A stretch of 33,352 bases of DNA from a virus. The position numbers and the translations under genes were made by a program. Shown in pieces: positions 3,998 to 28,361 of the stretch; the first letter of the stretch is position 1; every line of letters starts with the position of its first letter. A model generated the notes under the pieces. That model did not search any database. It was given only the letters and a program-made list of their open reading frames with translations, and was not told the DNA's origin. The stretch lies in IMG/VR virus record IMGVR_UViG_3300048549_001357, positions 1 to 33,352 of that record. One strand, written 5' to 3'.

Positions 3998-6900
3998 TTA
4001 TAATATTAAAACTCGGTCTTCATGATTCTTGTATATAGTGTCCTCAATGTATTCGTCAAGACCAACATACTCAGGTTCATTACCTGACGTATTTTCTTTG
4101 CTTGGGGCTTCGCCTTTTTTGGTTACTACAACTATCGTGCTAATCATTCCAGTCCCGTTAGGATTTCCATCATTGTCATAAAAGTCCCTCTGTGTTCTAG
4201 AAGCAGAAGTTGCTCCAACTGGAAGACCCCAGTTTTCTAACGATATATTTGCATCAATTGTTGGCGCATAACCTGTCCCCTTTACAATTATTGGATTAAA
4301 AGTGTTGTAGTCTCCGAATAAGCCATAAAGACCCCTATTGGCCGCCACGGCATCATCTGCATATAAACCCATCAAAGCGATAGAATTACGATTATTCCAC
4401 CAGTTTATGTCTCCAACATAGCCATTATTACCAACTGCGAAAACGACTGGGTCGTGCCATCGATAACCAAAATATGCAGGGCTTACGGGACTCCACGGCA
4501 TATAATGCTTTGTTTTAGTGGATGTATGTAAAGAATAAGTGTGTTTATTTGCCGATAAAAAACACAAAGTTTTGTTAGAATAAGTAACTCCCTCATAAGG
4601 AATTATAGTTTGTTTAGCGCTAGTTATGCCATCTTCATCTTGCTCTATAATTGTAGCAGTTGATGAACAGTAATCTCCCATTAAAAAATATGTGTCAGCT
4701 TCCCCTAGTGCATTAACTCCTCCTAAAACATTAGGTATGTATTGCTGGGCTAATGCACGGGCAATTTGATTGTAGCCATAATTGCGATAGTTGAAGTTGA
4801 TTTTATTCCGCCCTCTCATGGCATTTTGTATAACATTTACTTTTTTTAACGCAAAAAGGTCATTGGAATGGTCATTTTCCCAGTTATAATTCCCGTAAAA
4901 ATGCCAAGACCCATTTACATTGTGAATAAAATCATAAGGAGCATCTTGGCAAAATTCATTTCTTTCATTTGCTGCTATTTCAATTAAGGGCTTGTTTTGA
5001 TTGTCGGCAATTATTGCTTGTGATATTTTTTTTTGTAAAGCAGTAGAGCCTAACTGAATTGGAGTATCTATAATGAATGCAGATTCTTCGCTATCTCTTG
5101 TTGTTCTTCCAATTGAATCGTCTGTGTATTTAATTTCCCAAAATTTATTTTCCTTTCTCGAAAACACAGCTTGTTCAATATTGCTTCTTGATGAAAAAGC
5201 ATGCCAATATTTTTTGCCTGAAGTTGCCCCGTTATCGAGTGATTCGCTTACTACATATTTGTAAGTGGAGCGCTGGTAAAATAATTTCGCATTACTTCTA
5301 ATTGAACCAGAATATTGCTGCCTTAATGGGCCTGTTGAAGAAATTGCAACAATATTTTCTTCGGTTTTGTCTGTTCCTTGAATGGTAGAATTTGTGCTTG
5401 TGTTAGAGGAATAGCCCACATAAACCTTATTGCTAGTTCCGTTAAAGTTAGCTATATATGCGTCTCCAACCCTTGTTTGTAAACCTCCTAGCTTAGTCAA
5501 TGGATAGCGTCCCAAATTTGCTCCAATTAGCTCAAAGGGATAAGCCGCATTTTTTATATTAGATGTTGCACCAATTTGATTTAAATCAGCATTCTCTGGG
5601 TCTTTAGGCTCAAAATGTCCAGCGGCATTAGCGAATCCTATTTTTGTGTCTAGCTGTCCCCTGAGTACTCTTGATATTACTCCAACATCAATATTATTCA
5701 TGCGCTCAAGCCTTTCTTGGTCATAGCCATGCGCGTTTACATTATAAGCATTAATAATGACGTAGTCTTCTTTTGCTCCTAATTCACTATGTCTATTTGT
5801 GGAACCGTTTTTGTACTCCCCAGTCCGACCATCAGTCCATGAACTTTCGGTTTTGGCTGTATACTTTGTTGTCATTGTATCTGTTACAGGAGATTGAGCA
5901 TCATATGCCATATTATCTGCATTTGACCAAAAGTTATTTGTAAATTGAACTGTTGTAGTACTTAAGCGTATTGGGAATTCAACTTTTTCGCCCCCAATAT
6001 CAATAGAATTTGTATTGCTTACACTCATCCAATACACATTCGTAAATGAAAATTGCCAACTAGTCCAACCTTCGGTTTTCCATTCTGGGGTTGGAGGCTC
6101 CTCTTGAATATTTTCTGTTATTTTGAAATCATCTGCCGTGAATATAGTTACCCTAGGAGTATAATCACCCACATTGCCATCTTTGTCGGGAAACTTTCTA
6201 AATGTACCCACATATGTTGTGTTTTGTATGCTTGTATGCTGCTTGGGATTAATTTGCCTTATTCCATCCGATACCCAAGTGGGAACTAAATGGAATGTTT
6301 TGGTAGTGAAGGAACCTGAAGCACCATATGAGACATATGTCATTGTATTGGCTGATTCGCTAGTTCTAATCGTTGTCTTGTAACCAGATGGCCTAAATGT
6401 TGTCTTACCATCAGGATGTCCGAAAACCATCGTCCCTACTAAATAATAATCTGTGACAATAGGAGCGTCTGATTTTATTAATTCTCTCTTGTCAGCAAGT
6501 AAACTATACCTTGAGTTGGTTGTCCTGAGTTCTGTCTGTAAACCCATATATTTAAATAGGTTTTCTGCGGGAATTACTGGATACTTGTGTGTATAATATC
6601 CACCCGCTTCATAATCCCACCCATATTGTCTCTTGAAATTACCATCCCAAGCATATTCTCTAATAAAGCCATGTTGCCACATTAAGGGCCATGCTCCTTC
6701 TGTTGTAGTTATACAAGGTACATCAACTTTACAAGTCCGTGTTGAAGTTTTTGGAATAACCGAAGAAAATGTTTCCGAAACTGAATTTCCGTCAGCATCA
6801 AAAGATGTTGAGCTTGCCTCACTAGTGTAAGTTGCCATATATTTGCTTACGCCTTCTCCTGAAGTCATCATTCGAAGTGGAATGAAAGACATCCATAAAT

Positions 6901-9728: not shown

Positions 9729-10459
9729 TCGTATATATCCTTATTCCATTTATCTTTACCGCTTAGTCTGTATTTCTTCTTAACAATCATTTGCTTACCA
9801 ATTGGTTCTAATGAACTTCCTATAATCAACCAATCACGACTAGAAAAAGATGGTTTTCCTCCACTTGAATTTGCGCCTGCGGGTTTGTGGGCGGGTATAC
9901 TACTTGCAATTTCACCTACCTCGTTCAAGTCTACATACCCACCCTTGTCGATGTAAGTTTGCGCCTCTACTATTACTGAAGGACTTAAATAGGATTTAAC
10001 TCCCGCTTTCATGATTTCTTCTTCTTGGGGACAGTTGCCAGAGTTTGTATCAAAACCTTTGAATGTACCATCGTCATTAAATATTGCCCCATTCTTAGGC
10101 TCCTCGCTCGTCCCAGCAAAATCCTCAAAATCTTTATGGGTGTCTATTGGCTCCGTGGACAGGCCTGCCGTGATAGAAAGTGCAGTACCACTTGTGTCTC
10201 CTATTCCTCGGTAAACAAATGTGACTTCAATAAATGGGCCTTGATTTGTTGCATTTACATTAACGCATCGCAAATGGTCGTAATTTCCGTGAGATTCTCC
10301 TAGCTGGTCTAAAGCCCAAGATGAAGCAGATTCCAAAGTATAAGTTTCAGCACCTAGTAGATACTTTCCTGTCGCTCCCTCAACCCCATTCATTCCATAT
10401 GTAATAGTTGAACCAACAGTCTCAAAAGCATCATCACCATGTATTTTTATTTGACTCAT
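9725..10459 (-). CDS. Distal tail protein with duplicated C-terminal module
   Basis: A 244-residue protein immediately after the tape measure gene, with which it shares an ATGA stop/start overlap. In siphoviruses this slot normally holds the distal tail protein, but I see no sequence motif that proves that identity. Residues 77-244 align by eye to the C-terminal 170 residues of the next protein: FIEVTFVYRG, PIDTHKDF, KNGAIFNDDGTF, AGVKSYLSPS and YRLSGKDKWNKDIYE. The N-terminal 76 residues (SQIKIHGDDAFETVGS onward) are specific to this copy. It probably forms or joins the tail tip. The duplicated module could be a shared docking domain; function unknown. Confidence 0.72.
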   Translation of the reverse strand: MSQIKIHGDDAFETVGSTITYGMNGVEGATGKYLLGAETYTLESASSWALDQLGESHGNYDHLRCVNVNATNQGPFIEVTFVYRGIGDTSGTALSITAGLSTEPIDTHKDFEDFAGTSEEPKNGAIFNDDGTFKGFDTNSGNCPQEEEIMKAGVKSYLSPSVIVEAQTYIDKGGYVDLNEVGEIASSIPAHKPAGANSSGGKPSFSSRDWLIIGSSLEPIGKQMIVKKKYRLSGKDKWNKDIYE

Positions 10460-13400
10460 GCTGTACCTCCACCAGAAGAATTAACCGCAATAGGTTGCAT
10501 GCCATTTAAGCTAGATGTGTTCTTGGCAATTGTTTGCAGAATTGATTGATTTCCTTGAAGTGCGGCTACCATTGATGCTGTATTTACCTCCATAGGAGTA
10601 GGGGCAGCTGCCAATGGTTGCGCTCCAGCATTTGGAGCTATCGGCTTTATTGCAGTTTTGATTCCTTGCATTACTCCTACAGGAGCTGCGGCTTTTTCAT
10701 TTAATCCCGCTTTGTCTGCGAGAAAATTCCCCTCTGGATTGAAATTTCTTTTATCTGCTTTCATTCCAAACCCATCTAATAAAGCTTGTGCTTGACCCCT
10801 TAATCCTTCTCTTTGTGCTTTATTCAAATTTGGATTTTTGGCGTTTTCGGTGAGTTTATTGAATCCCTGAAGCATGACATTAAGCTCTTTATTATCGAGC
10901 TTGTTCATCATTACATTTAAAGCTTCATTTTTACCTTCAAATTCCTTTGGTGTCTGGAGAACCTTAAGCATAGTGATTAATACATCACGGGCTTGTTGCT
11001 GAACCTCTAATTGCTTATCTTCTATATTGCCTCCTGCTCCAACGCCTCCTCCTCCTCCTATGGCTGCCAATGAAGATACTCCAGCTTGTCCTTTTGTTTC
11101 GCCCTCCGCTACATTTCCAGCAATTTTCATTGCTTCGTTAGCTCTTTCTTTTCTTTGTCTTGCTTCTTCCTTGATTCTATTGTCTTGCAATTTTTTCTCT
11201 CTTTCTGCGTTACCAAGGTTTTCATTTGCCATTTCTTTGTCTTTGGCAACATCTCCTTCCTTATCTATATTTGCAGAAATTTTCGAAAACTCGTTTGCTA
11301 ATATTTGACCTATTTTTAGGTTTATATCTTCATTAGTTCCTCCTTCGGCTCTAATTTTGGAAATTTCGTCTGCTATTCTTTTATCTGCTCCGTCAAGCCC
11401 TCTAGTTGCTTCTGATTTTTCTGCTCCCGCTTCTGCTTGAATAATCTTTATTTCACTTTGTATATCTTTTTGCTGGTCATCTAGCACTCCCATGCTCTGC
11501 TTGTATTGCGCAACTCCTTTCTTGTCTTGTGGGTCAGGTGCTCCTTGCTCTACAAGTTTTGCCTTTGCATTTATTACATCCATTATCTGTGCCTGAAGGG
11601 CGAGTATCTTTAATCTTCTTTGCTCTTCATCAGCCGCAAGTTTTGCTTCCGTTTTTGACTTTAATTGTTTTGCTATTAGCTCCGCTTCTTTATTCGTTGC
11701 CTGCTGTAATAAACCATTTATTTTTTTTCTTACAAGCTCTTCTTCTCTAGCTTCTTTAGTCATTTTCGATATAAAATCATTTGCCGTTTGCAATAACTGT
11801 ACATCTAGTGCTGTTCTCTCTTCTTGAGTTGCATTTTGTATATCAGTAGGTGATAAATCTCCAAGGCTTTTTTCTGTCCCATCTTCAGTCTTGAAGGTCT
11901 TGTCCATAATTTCCGTACCAGCAAAAGCCTTTTGGAAATTTGCAAGTAAGTTAGTTGTCCCTCTTTTTGCTACTCCATCGTCATAATTTGAGCCAGTAGT
12001 GGTGAATCCACCCATGTTTTCTCTCTGTTTTTTAAGAGATTGTAATTCGGCATTATCTTCTTTGAAATTTCTTTGATTATTTTGGTAAACTTGCGCGACA
12101 TTTGAGTTGCCTATGAGGGAATCTTGGGAAAATTTCCCTTCCATGTCTGTAATCTTTTCTTTACTAAGTCTTACTTTCTCCTCTTGCCGTCCAATTCTTG
12201 TGTCTATTCCTTCCCTATTTTGCGCACGCTGAGAGCCATAATCTGTTTGAGCTTTTGAGAAAAACTCGGTCAACGTGGGTAAGTTTTCCGTAAAACTTCC
12301 ACCATCTAGAAATACCGCTTCCTCTCCAAGTGCTGAATTATCAGAGCGTGAAGTTCTTGTTAATGCTCTGCTACCACCTGTTTTCCCCTTAAATGGGTTG
12401 TTTGCATCTTCTTTTGTACCGCTGTCTTCTCCTATAGATTCTCCACGTACGGTTGTGCCTTGGGCTGTAGCTGCAGCATAATCTTGGTTTGTTTTTTCTA
12501 TTTCTCTTAATCGATTTCGTAAATTAATTACTTCCTGCAATGCCTCTATTTCTTTTTCTATTTCTGTAGTTTTACCACCAGTTAAATCTGCATTTGATTG
12601 TTTTTCTAGAGCGTCCGCCATTCTTTGAGCTATATTTAAATCTTCTGTTAATTTTATTAAATTTTGAGTAGCTCTAATTCTTTCCATTATTGCCTCATTG
12701 GACTCATCATTTTCCCCAAATCCTTCACCTATCCCTGTATTTATTCCTTGAGCCTGAAGCCTTTCCATTAAGTCTCCATATTTTTCTGATATATCGTCAT
12801 CAAAATCTACATTACCTTCAAACTGTAAAACATCTTTCGCTAGTTGGTTTACTTCATCCTTCATTCCGTAAACTGCGGCTTGCTGTTCGGAGGATAATTG
12901 GCGACCTTGCTTTTGTTCTGGGTCTCCCTCGATTTGACCGCTCACGGGGCCTGCGTAATCTAGCCTATTACTCTTCCGTCTCATTCTAGCCGCATTTACA
13001 TCATCTCTTTCTGCTTGTTCTTCTAGCTCTCTAGCTCTTCTTCCTAGCGTATTATCCTCGTCAAAATTTACAGAATTTCTAATCTGATTTGCTTCTGCTC
13101 TATTTGCGGTTGCACTATCTTCATATTTTTGAACCGCTTTATCAGCTATCTGTTTTTGCCTTTGTGTTTCTGCATCCATTAAATCAAATACAGATAATTT
13201 TAATTTTTCAACTGCATCTAATTGCATTAAATATGAACCTTGGACTGAATCACCTAGCTCTGCCGCTTCAGTTGCGTATTTCTTAGATGCATCATTTAAT
13301 GCTTGTGTTGCTCCTTTTAAATTATTTACAGCCTCTACCTGAGCAATATATGCGTCAGCATTTTCATTAATAAATTTTTGTTTCTCTTGAAGTTGGTTAA

Positions 13401-15675
13401 TAATTTCTTGATTTGCGTTTCTTTGTTGAATCAATGAGTCTATTGCATCTTGGTCATCTAATTCATATGCCTCCTTTAAAGAAGCTTTTAATCTTTCAGC
13501 AAGGTCACCAGCTTTACTTAATTGTTGGGCTAATGCACCCTGCAACCTTATTTTATCAACTTCTGTTCTTAAATCTTTAAATGCTTTAACTGGTGCATTA
13601 TCCCCTATCGGCAAACCTTGCCTATCTGTTGTTTTCTCAAAGTTGCCATCTAAATTTTTCTTAACATCTATTTGCATTTCTTCGGAATCAAGAGTGTTTT
13701 TCAATTGAGAAACTTCGTCTTCAAGTTTTCCTACTTCTTTGCCTAATTTTTGCGTTCCTTCTGAGCTGTCAGATACAAATAAATCCCAAACTAATGCTAT
13801 ACCCTCAACTACTGCCATAAGAATAAGTAAAGGTGTAAAAAGAACCCCAACAGCTCTAGTAAGAGTTTTTACGGCGGTTGCTGCAACGCGCGAGACTACC
13901 GCAAGTGCGCCTACTGATGCATTTAATACCTTTATGGCTACGCTAGCTACTTTTGCACCTCGCTGCAAACCAAACAAGCTTATAGATAGTCCACGTACTT
14001 TAAGTGAAGAAGAGAGAACCGCAGAACCAAATAATTTAGTCCTTATTGCTCCACCTTGCATTGCTAAACTATTGAATGCAATAGACGCGCTGCTTTTCTT
14101 CAGGGCTACATTTTGAGTCGCTAATTGCGCTGCATAAAGTTTATTGCCAGTAGTTACTGCCTTTACTGCTCTCCTTTTCGCTAGAGTTGCAGTTATGTAA
14201 CTATAAGTATCTTTTGTTATTTTTTTAATACCTAGGCCGACTGGAGCCATTGCAGTCTTAAGGGCAGTAAATGCCGCTACGGCTAATCCCGCTACTTTGA
14301 ATCCTACGAAAATTTTAATTAAAGTAATTAACGATTCACCAATTCTTTCAATTGTACTAACAAAACCTTCCACCTTTTGATAGGTTTCACTTATTGAATC
14401 TCCAAATAAAGTTGCTCCACTAGCCGCCTCATCATATACGCTTAGTTTTCCTGATAAATAATTAAATGTATCTGCAATAAATTGAATTTTTTCACCAATA
14501 AATGCAGCGACTTCTCCTTGCTTGTATTGAGTAATAAATAAATCTTCATATGCAGATTGAACTTTTTTCAACTGACCAAATAAACTGTTTCCCATCACAT
14601 CAGCCATTTGCTGTGCAACTCCATTATTGTTCTGCATTTCTGTAGTCAATGAAGCAAGTTTTTCTTTACCCGAAAGCAATATGTTGAAAGCATTTGCGGC
14701 TCTTGCTCCAAACATTGTACTCACTTGAGTAGCAGTTACACTTGTTTGTGAAAACCTTTCTAAAATTTGCTGTAAGCTATGTACCTCTGGATTTATCTCA
14801 GAAAATGATATACCAAGGGCTTGCATACCTTGCCTCATGGCGGCTGATTGCCCAGCTATCCTAACTAGTACTTGCCTGAATCCTGTACCAGCCATACTTG
14901 CTTGCATGCCAGCATCAGATAAAACACCAATAGCAGCGGCACTCTCTTGTAAGCTTATTCCGTATGATGCCGCTGATGCTGATACATACTTCATGGCATC
15001 ACCTAGCTGTTGAATGCTCGTATTCGACCTAGAAGCTGTTGTTGCTATATCATCAACTACATCTGTCAGGTCGCCAGCCTCAAGCTTAAATGCGGTCATT
15101 ATGTTCGTTGCAATATCAGCCGCAGTTCCTAAATCAATTGCTCCAGCTTGCGCCAAATTTAAAGTTGCTCTTAAAGATTTCGTAGCTTCCGATGCAGATA
15201 ATCCCGCCATAGCTAAAAACTTTAGTCCTTGGGCGGCTTGTTGCCCCGAAAACATTGTTGTAGCTCCAAGCTTTTGCGCTTCACGGGACATCATTGAAAA
15301 TGCTCGCGCATTAGCATTTGTTATTGCGGCAACTTCAGCCATTGATTTTTCAAATCTGACTACTGCTTGAGCCGCTGTTCTGAATAAAACAATAGTAGTT
15401 CCAACTCCAGCCATCGCTGTAACTATTCTATTAAAAGTTGTTGCTACTTTTGTTCCAGAAGCGCGCATCCCGCTCATTCTGTTTTGGAGCTTTGCTATTG
15501 CTCTAGTTAAATTATATGTAGCGGGAACAGCTGCATTTGCATCACGATTGTAAGGCGTTAATGTTCTACTAGCCGTTTTTGATAAATTTGTTAGCTTGGA
15601 TTGAACACTAGTTATTGAGCGATTAAATCCACTACTATCCCCTTTAAATTTAAGTAAATAATCTGATGATGCCAT
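10456..15675 (-). CDS. Tape measure protein (TP901-like N-terminal core)
   Basis: A 1,739-residue protein, by far the longest gene, positioned directly after the tail assembly chaperone pair. Residues about 100-380 match the TP901-type tape measure core, with FEKSMAEVAAITNANA, LGATTMFSGQQAAQGLKFLAMAG, TAADIATNIMTAF and GIGVLSDAGM-like segments. Hydrophobic stretches occur at about 448-478 and 575-634, and the remaining 1,100 residues are mostly charged coiled-coil helix, ending in an Ala/Pro/Asn-rich tail. It sets tail length and is expected to be ejected into the host envelope. Using the common rule of about 0.15 nm per residue, a tail of roughly 250 nm would be expected (inference). The start ATG lies one base after the stop of the frameshifted GT product, indicating translational coupling. 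Confidence 0.93.
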   Translation of the reverse strand: MASSDYLLKFKGDSSGFNRSITSVQSKLTNLSKTASRTLTPYNRDANAAVPATYNLTRAIAKLQNRMSGMRASGTKVATTFNRIVTAMAGVGTTIVLFRTAAQAVVRFEKSMAEVAAITNANARAFSMMSREAQKLGATTMFSGQQAAQGLKFLAMAGLSASEATKSLRATLNLAQAGAIDLGTAADIATNIMTAFKLEAGDLTDVVDDIATTASRSNTSIQQLGDAMKYVSASAASYGISLQESAAAIGVLSDAGMQASMAGTGFRQVLVRIAGQSAAMRQGMQALGISFSEINPEVHSLQQILERFSQTSVTATQVSTMFGARAANAFNILLSGKEKLASLTTEMQNNNGVAQQMADVMGNSLFGQLKKVQSAYEDLFITQYKQGEVAAFIGEKIQFIADTFNYLSGKLSVYDEAASGATLFGDSISETYQKVEGFVSTIERIGESLITLIKIFVGFKVAGLAVAAFTALKTAMAPVGLGIKKITKDTYSYITATLAKRRAVKAVTTGNKLYAAQLATQNVALKKSSASIAFNSLAMQGGAIRTKLFGSAVLSSSLKVRGLSISLFGLQRGAKVASVAIKVLNASVGALAVVSRVAATAVKTLTRAVGVLFTPLLILMAVVEGIALVWDLFVSDSSEGTQKLGKEVGKLEDEVSQLKNTLDSEEMQIDVKKNLDGNFEKTTDRQGLPIGDNAPVKAFKDLRTEVDKIRLQGALAQQLSKAGDLAERLKASLKEAYELDDQDAIDSLIQQRNANQEIINQLQEKQKFINENADAYIAQVEAVNNLKGATQALNDASKKYATEAAELGDSVQGSYLMQLDAVEKLKLSVFDLMDAETQRQKQIADKAVQKYEDSATANRAEANQIRNSVNFDEDNTLGRRARELEEQAERDDVNAARMRRKSNRLDYAGPVSGQIEGDPEQKQGRQLSSEQQAAVYGMKDEVNQLAKDVLQFEGNVDFDDDISEKYGDLMERLQAQGINTGIGEGFGENDESNEAIMERIRATQNLIKLTEDLNIAQRMADALEKQSNADLTGGKTTEIEKEIEALQEVINLRNRLREIEKTNQDYAAATAQGTTVRGESIGEDSGTKEDANNPFKGKTGGSRALTRTSRSDNSALGEEAVFLDGGSFTENLPTLTEFFSKAQTDYGSQRAQNREGIDTRIGRQEEKVRLSKEKITDMEGKFSQDSLIGNSNVAQVYQNNQRNFKEDNAELQSLKKQRENMGGFTTTGSNYDDGVAKRGTTNLLANFQKAFAGTEIMDKTFKTEDGTEKSLGDLSPTDIQNATQEERTALDVQLLQTANDFISKMTKEAREEELVRKKINGLLQQATNKEAELIAKQLKSKTEAKLAADEEQRRLKILALQAQIMDVINAKAKLVEQGAPDPQDKKGVAQYKQSMGVLDDQQKDIQSEIKIIQAEAGAEKSEATRGLDGADKRIADEISKIRAEGGTNEDINLKIGQILANEFSKISANIDKEGDVAKDKEMANENLGNAEREKKLQDNRIKEEARQRKERANEAMKIAGNVAEGETKGQAGVSSLAAIGGGGGVGAGGNIEDKQLEVQQQARDVLITMLKVLQTPKEFEGKNEALNVMMNKLDNKELNVMLQGFNKLTENAKNPNLNKAQREGLRGQAQALLDGFGMKADKRNFNPEGNFLADKAGLNEKAAAPVGVMQGIKTAIKPIAPNAGAQPLAAAPTPMEVNTASMVAALQGNQSILQTIAKNTSSLNGMQPIAVNSSGGGTA

Positions 15676-15676
15676 T

Positions 15677-16380
15677 TTAGTCCAAAGTGTTTAAATAATC
15701 TAATGCTCCTAGTCCCTCCAAATTCCCTATTTTATTATTATTGTATGCACTCTTTGTGTCAATTCCGTTAGTCCTGTAAGCATAATGCTCCCAAGCATTT
15801 ACTAGAATTAAGGGCATGTCCCAGAAAACCTGTTGAGCCGTTAATCCGCATGCTTTCGATACTGCCCCTAGTAACGAAATTAAATACGGTGGCTCTATTT
15901 GTTTTTTGATTTCTTTTTGTGTTGAGCGCCCTCATCGCTCGGTATTGCAGCTACTTTAGTTGCTTGAGATTCATTCATCATAGAGGTAACGATTTCAACT
16001 AAATCTTCCATGTCATCCAATCCTAGCTCATCACCTAGCTCTAATGCTGATGCTTCAATGTTTATTCTAGAATCTATTTCTGATGTCAAACAAGCTGCAG
16101 TCACAGTTTTTCTATCTTGGCTTTGAATCCATAAAAAAATTAAAGCCTCCAGTACATTATTTCCCGCTTGTTCGCCCGTGACTAATGGAGATTTTAGTTT
16201 TTCCAAAATAGCTAACGTTGATAACGTTACTGGTCGTAAATTTAATTCGCCAAATTTTTTTGTTCCGCCTAGGGCTGCCGTTTTAACAGATGAATCTATT
16301 TTTTTTGCTTCTTCTGTGTCCCCTTGAAGGGCAGCATCTAGCGATTCTATTTCATTTATTACATCATTTTCTTCACTCAT
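15677..16380 (-). CDS. Tail assembly chaperone GT, made by -1 ribosomal frameshift
   Basis: Fusion of the 160 N-terminal residues of the G-type chaperone to 74 residues read in the -1 frame, total about 234 residues. The zero frame ends at TAG (15897-15895). Slipping back one base at A AAA AAC (15907-15901) enters a frame with no stop until TAA at 15679-15677, one base before the tape measure start. The extension reads QIEPPYLISLLGAVSKACGL, then TAQQVFWDMPLILVNAWEHY, and ends LGALDYLNTLD, a compact aromatic-rich domain as expected for the T part that binds the tape measure protein. The frameshifted gene fills an otherwise empty 218-base gap. This gpG/gpGT arrangement is known in lambda and many siphoviruses; frameshifting here is inferred from sequence. 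Confidence 0.87.
15895..16380 (-). CDS. Tail assembly chaperone G
   Basis: A 161-residue acidic protein just upstream of the tape measure gene, the normal place of the tail assembly chaperone. It begins MSEENDVINEIESLD and contains a mixed helical core (LNLRPVTLSTLAILEKLKSP, NVLEALIFLWIQSQDRKTV) followed by an acidic segment LGDELGLDDMEDLVEIV and a basic end, HKKKSKNK. It binds the tape measure protein in assembly and is not found in the virion in known systems. The slippery heptamer for the longer GT form lies over its last three codons. The ATG is preceded by a modest purine run (AAAGAAAGATATAAAA). Identity rests on position, composition and the frameshift site. Confidence 0.85.
   Translation of the reverse strand: MSEENDVINEIESLDAALQGDTEEAKKIDSSVKTAALGGTKKFGELNLRPVTLSTLAILEKLKSPLVTGEQAGNNVLEALIFLWIQSQDRKTVTAACLTSEIDSRINIEASALELGDELGLDDMEDLVEIVTSMMNESQATKVAAIPSDEGAQHKKKSKNK
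15901..15907 (-). promoter_or_regulatory. -1 frameshift slippery heptamer A AAA AAC
   Basis: Read on the minus strand, the zero-frame codons TCA AAA AAC AAA TAG place A AAA AAC exactly in register for tandem -1 slippage (X XXY YYZ). The zero-frame stop is one codon downstream. Slippage joins the G frame to a 74-codon open frame. I did not identify a convincing downstream stimulatory hairpin. Confidence 0.85.
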
Positions 16381-16382
16381 TT

Positions 16383-16832
16383 TTATATCTTTCTTTTATT
16401 TCCGTATTTAGCTTCAAGAACTTTTTGTTTTTTTGTACCCTCTCCGACCCAAACTGTTGGGCCATTATCAAGTTTGTATTCAAATATTCTAGCTTTTTTA
16501 TTAATCAAGTTATTAAACTCTTTTAGATTCATCAATGTAGCCATTGCTACAGCAAATGGGTCATCTTGATTTTCCTCTATATGTTTTGTGCCATCTTTCC
16601 ATGCTTTATGGCATTGCAGGCTTTCATATTTTCCATCTACTGAACGTGTGGATAAATTATAAAATACTGTTTCTCCACCTTTATTAACATTACGAACAAT
16701 CGGGTTATTTTTTGCAGGAGTAAAACCAACAGTTAGCATTGCTACTGCTAAATTAGTGTTTGCTGTACGAAAAAAGGAATCTCCTTTAGAGACTCCTTCT
16801 TTGCTAGAATTTTTACTAGAATTGTCTTCCAT
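16383..16832 (-). CDS. Hypothetical tail-module protein
   Basis: A 149-residue basic protein that I do not recognise. The N-terminus is Ser/Asn/Lys-rich (MEDNSSKNSSKEGVSKGDSF), followed by a central part with TNLAVAMLTVGFTPAKNNPI and a charged C-terminus ending EAKYGNKRKI. It starts 48 bases after the preceding tail gene and ends 2 bases before the chaperone start. No Shine-Dalgarno is evident upstream of the ATG. Its place between the tube candidates and the chaperone suggests a tail-related function, but nothing in the sequence says what. No membrane segments or catalytic motifs are visible. Confidence 0.65.
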   Translation of the reverse strand: MEDNSSKNSSKEGVSKGDSFFRTANTNLAVAMLTVGFTPAKNNPIVRNVNKGGETVFYNLSTRSVDGKYESLQCHKAWKDGTKHIEENQDDPFAVAMATLMNLKEFNNLINKKARIFEYKLDNGPTVWVGEGTKKQKVLEAKYGNKRKI

Positions 16833-16880: not shown

Positions 16881-17228
16881 TTAAATGTTTTCGTAGCCTG
16901 TCGCTTTTATAGAAGTCTTTACCCAATCCTCGTTTGAGAACTCAACTGTAGACTCATCAACATACAGGTTTGCATTATCAGGAGATACTGAGCTAACGCT
17001 AAGTGTATCACCAGCACTCTTTTTGTTGTCACCTAAACCTTCTATGGTAACTTCTGATGTTTTATTGTAGTATGCGATTGCAACTACACAACCTTTTGAG
17101 TTTTTACCTTCTGCTTTTTCTGTTCTCTCAGTAAGACTGATTGAAGTCATGGCTGTAAAACCAGCTTCATCTTGACCGATTCCCCAATCGGATTCGGTGA
17201 ATGAACCTCTAACTGTAATAGTACACAT
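16881..17228 (-). CDS. Small beta-rich virion protein, possible tail tube component
   Basis: A 115-residue protein of mostly beta-prone sequence. The C-terminal part (TSEVTIEGLGDNKKSAGD, LYVDESTVEFSNEDWVKTS, IKATGYENI) resembles short tail tube-like proteins in rhythm, but this is a weak resemblance. It is preceded by the clearest ribosome binding site in the window, GGAGG nine bases before the ATG (17228), consistent with strong expression. It follows the 170-residue virion protein candidate and precedes the chaperone region. Either this or the 170-residue product could be the major tail protein; alternatives are a tube decoration or neck component. Confidence 0.7.
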   Translation of the reverse strand: MCTITVRGSFTESDWGIGQDEAGFTAMTSISLTERTEKAEGKNSKGCVVAIAYYNKTSEVTIEGLGDNKKSAGDTLSVSSVSPDNANLYVDESTVEFSNEDWVKTSIKATGYENI

Positions 17229-17255: not shown

Positions 17256-17768
17256 TTATGATTCGTCTTTTAAATCAGTTGTTCCTTGATAAACCGCTGA
17301 TACTGTGAAAGTTTGCGTTATTTCAGCAGACCCAAAACTACCTGCGGCATATCTTGCATTGTTAATTGCAATTTTAAAATTGTCTGGCTCTTGAGTTAAG
17401 TTTTGTTCTGTGAAATCAGATGTAGCAGATGCTGGCGCAGTAGTTGAAGTCAGAGTTCCACTAGATGTTTTTTTGTAAATTATACCAAGGTGTTTTACAT
17501 AATCATTTTGAGAAACTTCGATTCCTGAAACCCAATCAGTTGCGGAACTATTAATTGCATCAAAAGTTGCTGCAATATCTAGCAAATTTTTAGCCATTGT
17601 TTGTATGAGAGCAAAACCAATTTTTCTGCCGTCATCAGCAGTAACTTCTGCTGCAGTTAATCCTCCGTCTCCAGATAACGCAGTAAGCGGCACGGTAATG
17701 TCACCACCTGCACTAGCAGTCGCGCCTGTAAATATGTCATCTAATCCAATATCTTTTGTAGTAGCCAT
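17256..17768 (-). CDS. Candidate major tail / virion structural protein
   Basis: A 170-residue acidic, Ala/Thr/Ser-rich protein. It starts MATTKDIGLDDIFTGATASA and has a helix DGRKIGFALIQTMAKNLLDI, then a segment DWVSGIEVSQNDYVKHLGII that resembles small carbohydrate-binding (chitin-binding type 3-like) folds, and ends with a beta segment ITQTFTVSAVYQG. It is located between the probable tail terminator and the chaperone, where major tail proteins normally lie. It has its own 74-base leader with a promoter-like element shared with the capsid gene, suggesting high expression. No clear Shine-Dalgarno precedes the ATG. Tail tube identity is a guess from position; it could instead be a decoration protein. 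Confidence 0.7.
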   Translation of the reverse strand: MATTKDIGLDDIFTGATASAGGDITVPLTALSGDGGLTAAEVTADDGRKIGFALIQTMAKNLLDIAATFDAINSSATDWVSGIEVSQNDYVKHLGIIYKKTSSGTLTSTTAPASATSDFTEQNLTQEPDNFKIAINNARYAAGSFGSAEITQTFTVSAVYQGTTDLKDES

Positions 17769-17842: not shown

Positions 17843-18358
17843 CTATTTAGGCAAGCTTCTTGTTCCCCTTATGTACGGAATTGGGTAAATCATTACTTGG
17901 AATTCAATAATCCAACTAATTTCATTGACTTCAGTACTTGATACAGATGTAAGCATTGGCTCTACGCAAGATGAATTTAATGTTAAATCTTGGCATGAAT
18001 TACTATCTAACTCTATGCTATCTTTAAATCTAGAAATCCAGTCTAATAATCCAAGTTGCGTCTTGCCATCTTGACTAAATGGGCCATTTTCCGCCCTAAA
18101 TGCTAATGAAAATGTTAAGTTTTGAGTACTTCTTACTACGCTGTTTGAAAGGTTTGTCATTGCTTTTGCTCCAGCAAAATTTTCTTCTTCATCAGAATAC
18201 CCAGTAAACCTTATGTTTGGCAACTGGTCTTCACCTTCTGAGTCTGTTGTTGGTCTTCTGTTGAATGCACAACCTTCTAGCTTTCCCCCTGCTCCCAATT
18301 CCCGCTTTATTCGGGTAATAATTTCGTTTAATGCGTCTGCTATATGCGGTTTACTCAT
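17843..18358 (-). CDS. Probable tail terminator protein
   Basis: A 171-residue protein that follows the gp10-like neck protein and precedes the tail tube candidates, the usual slot for the tail terminator that caps the tail and joins it to the head. The start MSKPHIADALNEIITRIKRE is a helix of the type seen in terminator proteins (domain aligned to the tail end), and the C-terminus holds beta strands (EISWIIEFQVMIYPIPYIRG). The ATG overlaps the upstream gene's stop region by 4 bases. Two cysteines near 122 and 130 are not obviously functional. Identity is by gene order and general shape, not by motif. Confidence 0.62.
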   Translation of the reverse strand: MSKPHIADALNEIITRIKRELGAGGKLEGCAFNRRPTTDSEGEDQLPNIRFTGYSDEEENFAGAKAMTNLSNSVVRSTQNLTFSLAFRAENGPFSQDGKTQLGLLDWISRFKDSIELDSNSCQDLTLNSSCVEPMLTSVSSTEVNEISWIIEFQVMIYPIPYIRGTRSLPK

Positions 18359-19522: not shown

Positions 19523-19765
19523 TTACGCAATATTAATTTGACTAGGGTCAACTTTTTTAGTCATTTTCCCATCAAATGGGTTTGATTGTGCAGTAGGCTT
19601 ATTCTCCTGCACTAGTTTTTTGAGTTGTTTCGCTACGTCTAGTGACTCTCCGCCTTCTATTTGATTTAGTAGGCTCAGGAGTTTCTTTTTTCTTTCGGGC
19701 AGTTTTATCTCCGTCTGGATTAACATCCTTGCTCTTTTCTTGCTTATTCTTTCTGGAATTTTCAT
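19523..19765 (-). CDS. Possible small overlapping gene or frameshift extension
   Basis: An 80-codon ORF that overlaps the end of the 179-residue gene in another frame (19599-19765) and then fills the gap to the connector gene, ending 2 bases before its ATG. It reads as a credible helical protein, for example SLLNQIEGGESLDVAKQLKK, then VQENKPTAQSNPFDGK. An in-frame TAG lies only two codons upstream of its ATG, so the ATG is the earliest possible start. No Shine-Dalgarno is visible before it. Alternatively the segment is reached from the 179-residue frame by a +1 shift, for which an A6 run near 19615-19620 is a candidate. It may also be fortuitous. Confidence 0.45.
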   Translation of the reverse strand: MKIPERISKKRARMLIQTEIKLPERKKKLLSLLNQIEGGESLDVAKQLKKLVQENKPTAQSNPFDGKMTKKVDPSQINIA

Positions 19766-20138
19766 TTTTAGCTAAATTTGAATGTGAGTTTAATAAACCT
19801 AAATTGTATGCAAGTTCTAAAATATATGCAACCAAGTTGTTTTTTCTTTTGTTTTTCCAATTCTTATTGTCTTGAATTTCACTCTGAATAATTAATTCTT
19901 GCGTGATTTTCCATAGAGCTTGTTTAGGCTTACAAACTAATCGCATGTCAATTTCATCGGTTTCCCAATTAATTAAATGTAATTTTTTATATTTCGTAAA
20001 AGGTTTTAAATTCTTAACTTCAGGTAGGTCACAATATTGTATTAAGTTTTTTTTATTATGCTTCCTCTGCTTTATCCATTGAATCTCTGTAATTTCAAAA
20101 AGATTATCACCTTCTTTTTTATTTTTTATAAGTCTCAT
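19599..20138 (-). CDS. Hypothetical basic protein downstream of the capsid gene
   Basis: A 179-residue lysine-rich protein that I do not recognise. The first 125 residues form a mixed alpha/beta part (LFEITEIQWIKQRKHNKKNL, KPKQALWKITQELIIQSEIQ); the last 55 residues are low complexity and very basic (KNKQEKSKDVNPDGDK, then RRRRVTRRSETT). It is the first gene after the capsid terminator, with a promoter-like TTGACA sitting inside the terminator loop. The position between the capsid and connector genes is where decoration or small head proteins occur in other phages, but a role is not shown. Its final third overlaps the ORF at 19523-19765 in a different frame. Confidence 0.65.
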   Translation of the reverse strand: MRLIKNKKEGDNLFEITEIQWIKQRKHNKKNLIQYCDLPEVKNLKPFTKYKKLHLINWETDEIDMRLVCKPKQALWKITQELIIQSEIQDNKNWKNKRKNNLVAYILELAYNLGLLNSHSNLAKNENSRKNKQEKSKDVNPDGDKTARKKKETPEPTKSNRRRRVTRRSETTQKTSAGE

Positions 20139-26466: not shown

Positions 26467-27218
26467 TAGAATGGAAATATTAGGGTTCGCTCTCCCTTGT
26501 TTATTGATTTTTTCAATTTACTCATGACTTTATCCTTAACTATCTCAGCTCCAAATAAAGCACGTAGTCTTTCAGTATTCCTTACCATTGACTCTTGGGT
26601 TCTATAAAGCGAGCAGCCTCCATCTGCGGTGAAATTTTGATATGTCTTGAATACATACCTTTGGTCAATTACTGAAAATCTATTTTTGTAAATATTCATG
26701 CAACATATGTAATAATCTTCCGCCTCATCGAAGGTTAAGTCATATTTCAAATTGTGACCTTCTAAAAATCCCATAAAACTATTATTTATGTATTTTGTAT
26801 GAACGATTGGCTTGCCAGCCTCAAACTGAACTGGCTCTCTTGCATTTGAAAACCCAAAGTGGAAACCTCCCATTTGCTTTGTAATTGATGCTAAATCTTG
26901 AATTAACTGCCATGCAAAACTTGGGTCTGTTACGTTAGTTTCAACTTTTTGTGTCACTTCAAATTGTCTTCTCACTACATATATATCATCATCTGCCATA
27001 AATATATTCGACCATTTTTCAAGCATCCATTGCCTAGTTGCTACTATTCCCTTAATACTATCGGGGCATCCAATTATTTCATTATTTGGTAATGATTCTT
27101 TATATTCATCAGCTTCTCTATTTGGCACTACAAAAGCTACATTATCTATTATGTTTTGAGTCTTTGTACTCCTTGCTCTGCCCATACTAGGGCTAACAAC
27201 TTTTACTATTTCATTCAT
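26466..27218 (-). CDS. GT-A glycosyltransferase-like protein, second copy
   Basis: A 250-residue protein that looks like a GT-A glycosyltransferase: PSMGR at residues 10-14 near the start and ADDD at 75-78 following a hydrophobic strand (NIFM), the latter expected to bind the metal of a nucleotide sugar. The region GIVATRQWMLEKWSNIFMAD aligns with GQIYNIRDYARDKGYKYIMK of the product of 28361-29104, so the two are paralogues. Phage proteins of this build include TET-associated glycosyltransferases that sugar modified bases; that link is from family knowledge and unproven here. It overlaps the ParB-like gene by 8 bases. No nucleotide-modifying partner is in the window. Confidence 0.6.
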   Translation of the reverse strand: MNEIVKVVSPSMGRARSTKTQNIIDNVAFVVPNREADEYKESLPNNEIIGCPDSIKGIVATRQWMLEKWSNIFMADDDIYVVRRQFEVTQKVETNVTDPSFAWQLIQDLASITKQMGGFHFGFSNAREPVQFEAGKPIVHTKYINNSFMGFLEGHNLKYDLTFDEAEDYYICCMNIYKNRFSVIDQRYVFKTYQNFTADGGCSLYRTQESMVRNTERLRALFGAEIVKDKVMSKLKKSINKGERTLIFPF

Positions 27219-27891
27219 CAGCAGGAGCTTCCGAATTATTAAGTATTATTTCTTGAAACCTTTCAGCCGTTATGCAATGCGAGGGAGATACTGCATTGCT
27301 TTTGTAATCTTGATGAGTTTCAGTTAATCCAAGAAAATTTTTCATCCAATGAACATCTAGTTCATTATTACAAAATATTAAAAAAGTTGTGTACTTTTCA
27401 TTGTACTTAGGGATTATGGGATATTTTTTTTCATTTAACTCCGCTTCTTCTTCTAATGCTTTTTCTTCTATTTTATCAATTTCTTTAAATTGAGATGACA
27501 ACTCTTGTTCAGCAAAACCCCAATCTACTAAATTTTCCGAGTTGAATGTTTGTTTAAGTATTGAGAAATCCCATTCTCCTTGGTTTTTATTTAACCTAAC
27601 GTTTAATTCTTTTTCTTCTTCTAAATTTAAATCTACGAATACTGCTGGCACAGACTTGTAGCCCATTTCTCTTGCTACCTTTACTCGCTGATGCCCTCCT
27701 ACAATAATGTTTTCCCTTTCTTTCGATTTATTAACTATAACTGGGTCAACAAAACCAAATCTTGTCAGAGAATCTTTTATGTCTTCAAATTTCTTTTGAG
27801 ATAAAGTTCTAGGATTATACTCTGCTGGAGTTACTGAGGTTATATCTATTTCATGAACTTCTAATTTTTTATTTATATTTGATTGTTCCAT
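27211..27891 (-). CDS. ParB-like domain protein (no methylase domain)
   Basis: A 226-residue protein with an N-terminal ParB/sulfiredoxin-like domain at about 14-105: EYNPR at 24-28, FGFVDPVIVN at 45-54 and GGHQRVKVAREMGYKSVPAV at 65-84, followed by LNKNQGEWD. In phages this domain often joins a DNA methylase or nuclease; here the C-terminal half (about 140-226) contains no methylase motif, only an acidic linker and a segment TTFLIFCNNELDVHWMKNFL that recurs in phage ParB-like proteins as I recall. It sits between a RecU-like resolvase and a glycosyltransferase-like gene, so a DNA-processing role is likely. It is unlikely to serve plasmid partition, as no ParA is present. Confidence 0.82.
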   Translation of the reverse strand: MEQSNINKKLEVHEIDITSVTPAEYNPRTLSQKKFEDIKDSLTRFGFVDPVIVNKSKERENIIVGGHQRVKVAREMGYKSVPAVFVDLNLEEEKELNVRLNKNQGEWDFSILKQTFNSENLVDWGFAEQELSSQFKEIDKIEEKALEEEAELNEKKYPIIPKYNEKYTTFLIFCNNELDVHWMKNFLGLTETHQDYKSNAVSPSHCITAERFQEIILNNSEAPADE

Positions 27892-27893
27892 TT

Positions 27894-28361
27894 TTATAAG
27901 TATTTCAAAAAATTAAGGATATATCCTTTTTCTTCGTTTATTTTTTCTGCAAATTCAATAGGAACACTTTTTCTGTCATTAGCAACACTTTTCCTAATGC
28001 ATTCAAGCGTTACCCAATAATACCCACTTAAGTTTTGCCAAATTACCCCTACTTTAGCTCCTGCTGATTTCCATTTAATTAAATCATCTAATTGTTTTTG
28101 CCTGATTCCTTGTTTGCCAAAAGGTAGGCTTTTGTGCTGGTTTGATTTTGCCTCTATGCAGACCATTTGACCGCTTGGTAAGCAACCAATAAAGTCAGGA
28201 AAAGGGTTCGGTAATAATGTTGTTAATTTCCCACTCCTTGTATTAATTGTTCTAGTTGGAGGGTCTACTTTTTGAAGATACAATAATCCTTTTGCGTGAA
28301 AAAACTCAGATTGTTTTTCTATTAAGTTTTCCAACGCTTTTCCTGTATTCTTTTTAAACAT
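27894..28361 (-). CDS. RecU-like Holliday junction resolvase
   Basis: A 155-residue protein with a PD-(D/E)XK nuclease core of the RecU type. NTGKALENLIEKQSEFFHAK at residues 5-24 matches the RecU start (G-K-x-x-E with an N-terminal helix), PDFIG at 55-59 holds the first acidic residue, and IEAKSN at 69-74 supplies the E-x-K. Later RQKQLDDLIKW (87-97) fits the core helix. It should resolve branched DNA produced by phage recombination or replication before packaging. The gene is coupled to the upstream glycosyltransferase-like gene by TAATG and followed after 2 bases by the ParB-like gene. Confidence 0.82.
   Translation of the reverse strand: MFKKNTGKALENLIEKQSEFFHAKGLLYLQKVDPPTRTINTRSGKLTTLLPNPFPDFIGCLPSGQMVCIEAKSNQHKSLPFGKQGIRQKQLDDLIKWKSAGAKVGVIWQNLSGYYWVTLECIRKSVANDRKSVPIEFAEKINEEKGYILNFLKYL

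What the first reader, a model, noticed from the sequence alone, without database searches (positions are those of the whole stretch)
15677..16380. Programmed -1 frameshift making the G/GT tail chaperone pair
A AAA AAC sits in register one codon before the stop of the G gene, and the -1 frame stays open for 74 codons to end one base before the tape measure ATG, filling an otherwise empty gap. This hidden coding segment would be missed by ordinary gene calling. The type of recoding is known; the site here is specific and clean.
Basis: partly seen in the sequence, partly recalled or inferred. Interest (0 to 1): 0.5.

Follow-up and report, generated by a model that had tools for sequence, protein, structure and literature searches.

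The report
Phage tail-chaperone ribosomal frameshift site
Just before the gene that sets tail length, this virus of bacteria carries a slippery spot where some ribosomes should step back one base and make a longer version of a tail-assembly helper protein; two distant relatives keep the same spot and the same RNA hairpin right after it, so it is a well-supported example of a mechanism already known from many phages.

Summary
On the minus strand a 161-codon ORF (16380..15895) ends TCA AAA AAC AAA TAG. A AAA AAC (15907..15901) is in register, and the -1 frame runs 74 codons to a TAA one base before the tape-measure ATG. Two other independent phages covering the site were found (L009=L010, and L005). 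Both keep heptamer, spacing, stop and a -1-frame product 59% and 62% identical to this one, closing at the tape-measure start. In L009 the -1 frame opens only 3 codons before the shift, and the first start codon shared by all three is codon 29, so a frameshift fits better than a separate gene.

New here: 5 nt after the heptamer all three can form the same 61-nt stem-loop, more stable than nearly all synonymous recodings (6/2000, 0/2000, 10/2000). Covariation is modest. Of 20 other sites of this type, 3 passed a comparable test. A loop-downstream pseudoknot is possible but post hoc.

The chaperone role rests on gene order and architecture; no convincing sequence or fold match was found. The mechanism is known; nothing was measured.

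The parts
15895..16380 (-). G: zero-frame chaperone-like ORF, 161 aa, stop TAG 15897..15895
   Evidence: homologues L009:4293-4778 (55% identical) and L005:10260-10739 (43%)
15901..15907 (-). slippery heptamer A AAA AAC in register with G
   Evidence: identical and at the same distance from the stop in all three phages
15896..15900 (-). 5-nt spacer AAATA between heptamer and stem (the G of the TAG stop is the first paired base)
15835..15895 (-). predicted stimulatory RNA stem-loop: P1 15895..15891 with 15839..15835 (GAGCC/GGCTC); P2 15889..15884 with 15851..15846; P3 15879..15870 with 15863..15854; apical loop 15869..15864
   Evidence: calibration
15813..15816 (-). TGCC that could pair with GGCA at the edge of the apical loop (15866..15863; its last base is also in the closing pair of P3): tentative pseudoknot
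   Evidence: 34 of 20000 synonymous nulls reach 3 of 3 sequences; post hoc
15677..15901 (-). T: -1-frame extension, 74 codons plus TAA; a GT fusion would be 160 + 74 = 234 residues
10456..15675 (-). tail tape measure protein, start codon one base after the T stop
   Evidence: PHROG 4704, E 3.2e-61; TIGR01760, E 6.9e-54

Best explanation
A programmed -1 ribosomal frameshift makes two tail-assembly proteins from one start codon: G (161 aa, most ribosomes) and GT (234 aa, a minority). With A AAA AAC in the P and A sites, the ribosome is held by a stem-loop beginning 5 nt downstream; the two tRNAs re-pair one base back (AAA AAA) and translation goes on in the -1 frame through T to the tape-measure start. 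By analogy with lambda, the G part would bind the tape measure and the T part would recruit the tail-tube protein, so the shift frequency sets the G:GT ratio. Shown here: site, frames, conservation, and a stem-loop prediction with support. Inferred: that shifting occurs, its efficiency, that the hairpin stimulates it, and the chaperone function. The confidence below is for the G-to-GT frameshift; for the stem-loop as its stimulator I would say about 0.8.
For: Exact site and frames. Heptamer plus AAR TAG and a homologous -1 frame in L009 (=L010) and L005; T 59% and 62% identical to the window's, G 55% and 43%. Differences in the -1 frame are most frequent at codon position 3 (29, 23, 28) and least at position 2 (7, 14, 11). 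In L009 the -1 frame opens 3 codons before the shift, and no start codon before codon 29 is shared. T closes at the tape-measure ATG in all three (TAAAATG, TAAAATG, TAATG). Stem-loop: 6/2000, 0/2000, 10/2000 synonymous recodings as stable (codon usage of the window for all three); 1 of 150 random in-gene windows reached z -2.8; 90.5% of cells paired against 30-46% when slid. A more distant tape-measure relative, L011, has an in-register A AAA AAG with a -1 frame ending 3 nt before its tape-measure start. A AAA AAC is reported for G/GT pairs of phiCbK and Loki (PMC3556154, PMC5313236, passages) and HCTV-2 (PMC5009743, passage).
Against: Only three independent sequences. No curated family threshold is met by G or T, profile comparison with two known G families is negative, and fold searches with a low-confidence G model give nothing solid (pLDDT 66). 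The major tail protein was not identified. [quoted passage not shown] coli constructs. Capsid relative L007 has an open -1 frame at that place but no in-register X XXY YYZ. Stem-loop: covariation is modest (3 pairs changed on both sides, reached by 14/500 shuffles, and the structure slid by -1 also shows 3); part of helix 3 is out of register in L005; with own-phage codon usage the support in the window and L005 is weaker (z -2.88 and -2.61; 2/200 and 3/200); by raw energy 17 other regions of the window fold as well or better.
Confidence: 0.93

Rival explanations
1. T is a separate small gene started by its own, possibly non-canonical, codon, with no frameshift.
For: The genome is poor in Shine-Dalgarno motifs (8 of 31 window genes have one by my motif list), so weak or unusual starts are conceivable. 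L009 has an ATG at T codon 7 and L005 one at codon 13.
Against: The window has no ATG/GTG/TTG before T codon 29; the first shared start is codon 29, downstream of a conserved block beginning QxEPP right at the shift site. The heptamer and its register would then be unexplained.
Confidence: 0.03
2. RNA polymerase slips on the A run (transcriptional slippage), giving mRNAs whose frame already joins G to T.
For: Six A in a row at the site in all three phages.
Against: A6 is short for slippage (recalled: about 8-9 A usually needed). The conserved codon phase A|AAA|AAC and a structured element 5 nt downstream fit ribosomal shifting (usual spacer 5-9 nt, PMC5009743 passage). A longer A run inside G (8 A from 16306) is not at the junction.
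Confidence: 0.03
3. Assembly error or recent mutation split one gene into two frames.
For: Homopolymer runs are error-prone (recalled).
Against: Same stop, heptamer and frame relation in contigs of two other phages, one of them assembled identically in two records.
Confidence: 0.005
4. The frameshift is real but the stem-loop is a by-product of conserved coding, not a stimulator.
For: P1 never varies, so it gives no covariation evidence, and sliding the pairs by -1 also gives 3 double changes. 17 of 20 other G/GT-type sites tested lack such a structure by the same test, so shifting does not need one.
Against: Structure more stable than nearly all synonymous recodings in all three. The codons forming P1 (GAG, xxG, GCT) are minority choices here: joint chance about 4e-6 if the three were independent, which they are not.
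Confidence: 0.15

Closest known systems
Lambda gpG/gpGT and the conserved G/GT frameshift of long-tailed phages (Xu, Hendrix, Duda 2004; seen only as a citation)
   Same: Gene order before the tape measure, shift near the 3' end of G, T ends at the tape measure start, two products from one start.
   Different: A AAA AAC instead of G GGA AAG; no convincing sequence relation of G to the two G families compared; end of the stop 6 nt instead of 18 nt after the heptamer; lambda showed no clear stem in the same test (61 nt: 11/200; 35 nt: 157/200).
Acinetobacter phage Loki gp12/gp13
   Same: Same heptamer next to the stop; in my folding a strong hairpin starting 8 nt after it (0/200).
   Different: Different hairpin (8-bp lower and 5-bp upper stem), G proteins not alignable by hhalign, and another gene (gp14) before the tape measure. 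The passages of PMC5313236 that I saw do not mention a hairpin there.
Caulobacter phage phiCbK gp93/gp94
   Same: A AAA AAC, chaperone pair directly before the tape measure (PMC3556154, passage).
   Different: No stem at the standard spacing (118/200 at 61 nt, 31/200 at 35 nt), though the best of 40 settings gave z -4.1.
IS3-family frameshift signals (stem-loop or ALIL pseudoknot stimulators, PMC5009743 passages)
   Same: -1 shift with a downstream elaborate stem-loop and possible apical-loop contact.
   Different: Transposase, not tail genes; there the apical loop pairs with an internal loop of a second stem-loop, here with a predicted single strand.

Membership tests
Phage G/GT tail assembly chaperone frameshift | Gene directly upstream of the tape measure gene | tested here: met
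   same in L009 and L005
[quoted passage not shown]
   conserved in all three phages
Phage G/GT tail assembly chaperone frameshift | Open, conserved -1 extension without an independent start | tested here: met
Phage G/GT tail assembly chaperone frameshift | Located downstream of the major tail protein gene | tested here: inconclusive
   Three unassigned ORFs lie upstream (17256-17768, 16881-17228, 16383-16832); only weak PHROG matches of unknown function for the first two and none for the third; none in NCBIfam; first two scanned in Pfam, none
Phage G/GT tail assembly chaperone frameshift | Sequence or fold relationship of G or T to known chaperones | tested here: inconclusive
   Only weak matches: T of all 3 phages to phrog_2768 (best E 0.0047) and 2 of 3 to phrog_33477 (best 0.028), both of unknown function; G of 1 of 3 to phrog_13121 (0.026); sub-cut-off Pfam and NCBIfam hits to ribosomal L25/TL5. 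hhalign with two known G families negative while those two match each other. Foldseek in BFVD: three uncharacterised phage proteins, E 0.02-0.04, probability 0.99-1.00, TM 0.44-0.49 on the query; PDB searches weak
Phage G/GT tail assembly chaperone frameshift | Both products made, at a skewed ratio | not testable with these tools
   Needs proteomics or a reporter
Structure-stimulated -1 frameshift signal | Stable RNA structure 5-9 nt after the heptamer | tested here: met
   spacer 5 nt (function of the structure not tested)
Structure-stimulated -1 frameshift signal with pseudoknot | Loop pairing with a distant strand | tested here: inconclusive
   GGCA/TGCC in 3 of 3; 34/20000 synonymous nulls, but noticed by eye before testing, and the loop position differs by two columns between the window and the other two
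Frameshift signal with upstream Shine-Dalgarno stimulator | SD-like element at a fixed distance 5' of the heptamer, conserved | tested here: not met
   By reading: AAGGAG close to the heptamer only in L005, GAGGG further off in the window, none in L009; genome SD-poor

The most novel reading that the evidence does not exclude
In this unclassified phage group the G/GT shift is driven by a dedicated, conserved three-tier stem-loop whose apical loop also pairs with a strand downstream of the stem (a pseudoknot), compensating for a heptamer that is weak in E. coli and for phages and hosts that make little use of Shine-Dalgarno stimulators.
Probability: 0.25. Interest if true: 0.45.

Novelty: new member of a known kind. 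Interest (0 to 1): 0.33.

Why it matters
It adds a 74-codon coding segment that an ordinary ATG/GTG/TTG ORF list misses and a clean G/GT pair from a phage whose G has no match in the annotated phage collection searched. If the stem-loop works as predicted, it gives a compact natural cassette for asking why some tail-chaperone shift sites carry a structural stimulator while 17 of the 20 others tested here did not show one.

Tried and rejected
Idea that A AAA AAC sites in G/GT genes always come with a hairpin (prompted by Loki): rejected. Of 8 other A AAA AAC sites only Loki passed at 3/200 or fewer in either test; Halfdan, FtMidnight, AH03, Langgrundblatt2, MMDA13, CcrBL9 and phiCbK did not. 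Across 20 other sites with a heptamer, 3 passed in either test (Loki, RcXuper, L011); HK97 was dropped because no X XXY YYZ was found in the last 150 nt of its gene. In the 35-nt version of the test the window (42/200) and L005 (99/200) do not pass either; L009 does (3/200). Their stem needs 61 nt.

Upstream Shine-Dalgarno stimulator: not conserved. Idea that the tape measure start lacks an SD because it is coupled to GT termination: not pursued, because 23 of 31 window genes lack one by the same motif list (my notebook entry gives 9-10 with a motif, the recount is 8).

Searches that found nothing: G and T single-sequence scans of viral contigs, T and capsid profile scans of genome contigs, tblastn of G in the phage collection (T gave 8 records at E 6-9 only), PDB by sequence profile, Rfam on 501 bases round the site (one hit below the gathering score, a eukaryotic snoRNA family on the other strand). 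Fold searches of the low-confidence G model found no match at E 0.001 or better; three uncharacterised phage proteins in BFVD (E 0.02-0.04, probability 0.99-1.00) were not followed. The AlphaFold2 model of T (pLDDT 58) was not searched. L019, L020, L023 and L024 from the pattern scan have zero frames of 6-12 codons at the match and are taken as chance. L007 was inspected: open -1 frame, no in-register X XXY YYZ. L008 was only listed for ORFs, L012 shows the same ORFs as L011 and was not used; L002 (capsid 99% identical) and L006 end before the region.

Control sample: of 239 records with a Loki G match 30 were listed and 10 fetched; of 64 with a phiCbK G match 20 were listed and 6 fetched; chosen by eye for diversity, so 3 of 20 is not a population estimate.

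Full report
What is there. The window is a 33,352-base virus record with 36% G+C. Its structural genes lie on the minus strand: portal (PF04860), capsid (PF05065), several mostly unassigned connector and tail genes, then ORF 16380..15895, a 219-nt gap, and the tape measure protein 15675..10456 (PHROG 4704, E 3.2e-61; TIGR01760, E 6.9e-54). The ORF before the gap ends TCA AAA AAC AAA TAG. AAAAAAC at 15907..15901 is in the phase required for tandem -1 slippage. From there the -1 frame has 74 sense codons and stops one base before the tape-measure ATG.

More than chance. Of 104 in-register X XXY YYZ sites (Y = A or T) in 30 window genes, 4 have a -1 frame that outlasts the gene's own stop, and only this one opens a long stretch of otherwise unassigned sequence. 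Dinucleotide shuffling of the stretch leaves 74 open codons in 87 of 20000.

Relatives. Single-sequence searches with G and T found nothing usable. Searches with the capsid and tape measure proteins brought in two independent phages covering the site: contigs 3300021958_000041 and 3300021964_010927 (no difference over the 11,401-base loci compared; counted once, L009) and 3300048034_001024 (L005). Both have a G homologue (55% and 43% identical), the same AAAAAAC followed by AAR TAG, and a homologous -1 frame (59% and 62%). T closes at the tape-measure start in each (TAAAATG, TAAAATG, TAATG) although its length differs (74, 75 and 63 codons). Profile searches with T and G in viral contigs returned only these contigs, and T and capsid profiles found none in genome contigs. 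A scan of viral contigs for the conserved DNA string gave 7 stretches: the 3 known contigs and 4 without a gene ending there. A more distant tape-measure relative, L011, has its own in-register A AAA AAG and a -1 frame ending 3 nt before its tape measure start; a capsid relative, L007, has an open -1 frame there but no in-register X XXY YYZ.

Why a frameshift. Differences between the T sequences (first 60 codons, no gaps) fall mostly at the third codon position of the -1 frame (29, 23 and 28), less at the first (18, 18, 16) and least at the second (7, 14 and 11), as expected if that frame is translated. It has no ATG, GTG or TTG shared by the three before codon 29, yet residues from codon 1 on are conserved. 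In L009 the -1 frame opens only 3 codons before the shift point, so the switch must happen at or right beside the heptamer.

A downstream RNA element. Beginning 5 nt after the heptamer, all three sequences fold into the same 61-nt arrangement: P1 (GAGCC/GGCTC), P2 (about 6 pairs) and P3 (about 9-10 pairs) with a small apical loop. Keeping the protein fixed and drawing synonymous codons from the window's usage, 6, 0 and 10 of 2000 recodings were as stable in the window, L009 and L005 (z -3.26, -6.14, -2.81). The same kind of test on 150 random in-gene windows gave one value at or below z -2.8 and eight at or below -2. With codons from each phage's own genes the values are -2.88, -6.65 and -2.61. 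On the ungapped alignment 90.5% of cells pair, against 30-46% when partners are slid by 1-3 columns; 3 of 21 pairs change on both sides, a count reached by 14 of 500 shuffles and also by the structure slid by -1, though there only 41% of cells pair. P1 never varies, and part of P3 in L005 is shifted by one base, so covariation alone is modest. By raw folding energy the window's hairpin is not exceptional: 17 other distinct regions of the window reach it (5 others in L005, none in L009). P1 uses minority codons (GAG 0.28, AAG 0.26, ACG 0.11, GCT 0.29). The loop region holds GGCA in all three and TGCC lies 18 nt after P1 in all three; synonymous nulls give such a shared pairing in 34 of 20000, but I noticed the pairing before I tested it, and in the window GGCA sits two columns further on and includes a base of P3's closing pair.

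How unusual is the element. I applied one fixed test (six offsets, two lengths, 200 synonymous recodings) to 24 sites. For the window, L009 and L005 the 61-nt result was 2, 0 and 3 of 200; the 35-nt result was 42, 3 and 99. Of 20 other G/GT-type sites with a heptamer, 3 reached 3/200 or fewer in either length (Loki, RcXuper, L011); HK97 had no X XXY YYZ where I looked and was dropped. The others were picked by eye from two families plus lambda and L011, so this is an indication, not a rate. It also refuted my idea that every A AAA AAC site has a hairpin. One paper states that structure downstream of phage frameshift sites is identified in rare cases (PMC3091744, passage), another that it is often found (PMC3483164, passage).

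Mechanism. The best reading is a G/GT pair. [quoted passage not shown] coli. The same heptamer is reported for phiCbK (PMC3556154) and Loki (PMC5313236) (passages), and I found it at 8 of 20 other sites examined. Here the shift, its efficiency and the chaperone function are inferred; the site, the frames and the conserved predicted fold are shown. This genome has an SD-like motif before 8 of 31 genes and no conserved SD-like element before the heptamer, so a downstream structure is the likelier stimulator. That the host belongs to a group with little SD use is a guess.

Membership. The positional and architectural features of the G/GT kind are met. Homology to known chaperones could not be shown: only weak matches below usual thresholds in PHROGs, Pfam and NCBIfam (the most consistent is T of all three phages to phrog_2768, best E 0.0047, function unknown), hhalign of G with the Loki and phiCbK G families negative although those two match each other, and fold searches uninformative apart from three uncharacterised phage proteins not followed up. 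G proteins are recalled to be highly diverged, so this does not count against the role.

Verdict. Supported. A new member of a known kind, with a better-than-usual case for a conserved RNA stimulator. No claim is made that such a stimulator is unreported; my paper searches covered open-access text only.

Noticed in passing
window 19523-20138, minus strand: Two ORFs (20138..19599, 179 aa; 19765..19523, 80 aa) overlap by 167 nt in different frames; L003 and L005 have the same arrangement with shorter overlaps, and both protein sequences look partly conserved through the overlap, so this may be a real dual-coding stretch between the capsid and head-tail adaptor genes.
   Followed up: partly
window 27894-27912, minus strand: Gene 28361..27894 ends with an in-register T TTT TTG whose -1 frame runs straight into the next ORF 27891..27211; that ORF has its own ATG, so probably chance.
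   Followed up: no
whole window: SD-like motifs precede only 8 of 31 genes, which would fit a host with little Shine-Dalgarno use.
   Followed up: partly
L027 (LN890663) 5021-5070: Phage Loki's A AAA AAC is followed after 8 nt by a strong hairpin (0/200 synonymous recodings as stable), not mentioned in the passages of its paper that I saw.
   Followed up: partly
L011 4719-4946: Tape-measure relative with an in-register A run ending A AAA AAG about 100 nt before the stop of the upstream gene and a -1 frame of 71 codons ending 3 nt before the tape measure start.
   Followed up: partly
L005 4178-8735: Between the counterparts of window ORFs 18358..17843 and 17768..17256, L005 carries extra ORFs of 774, 662 and 83 aa that are absent from that place in the window and in L009.
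   Followed up: no
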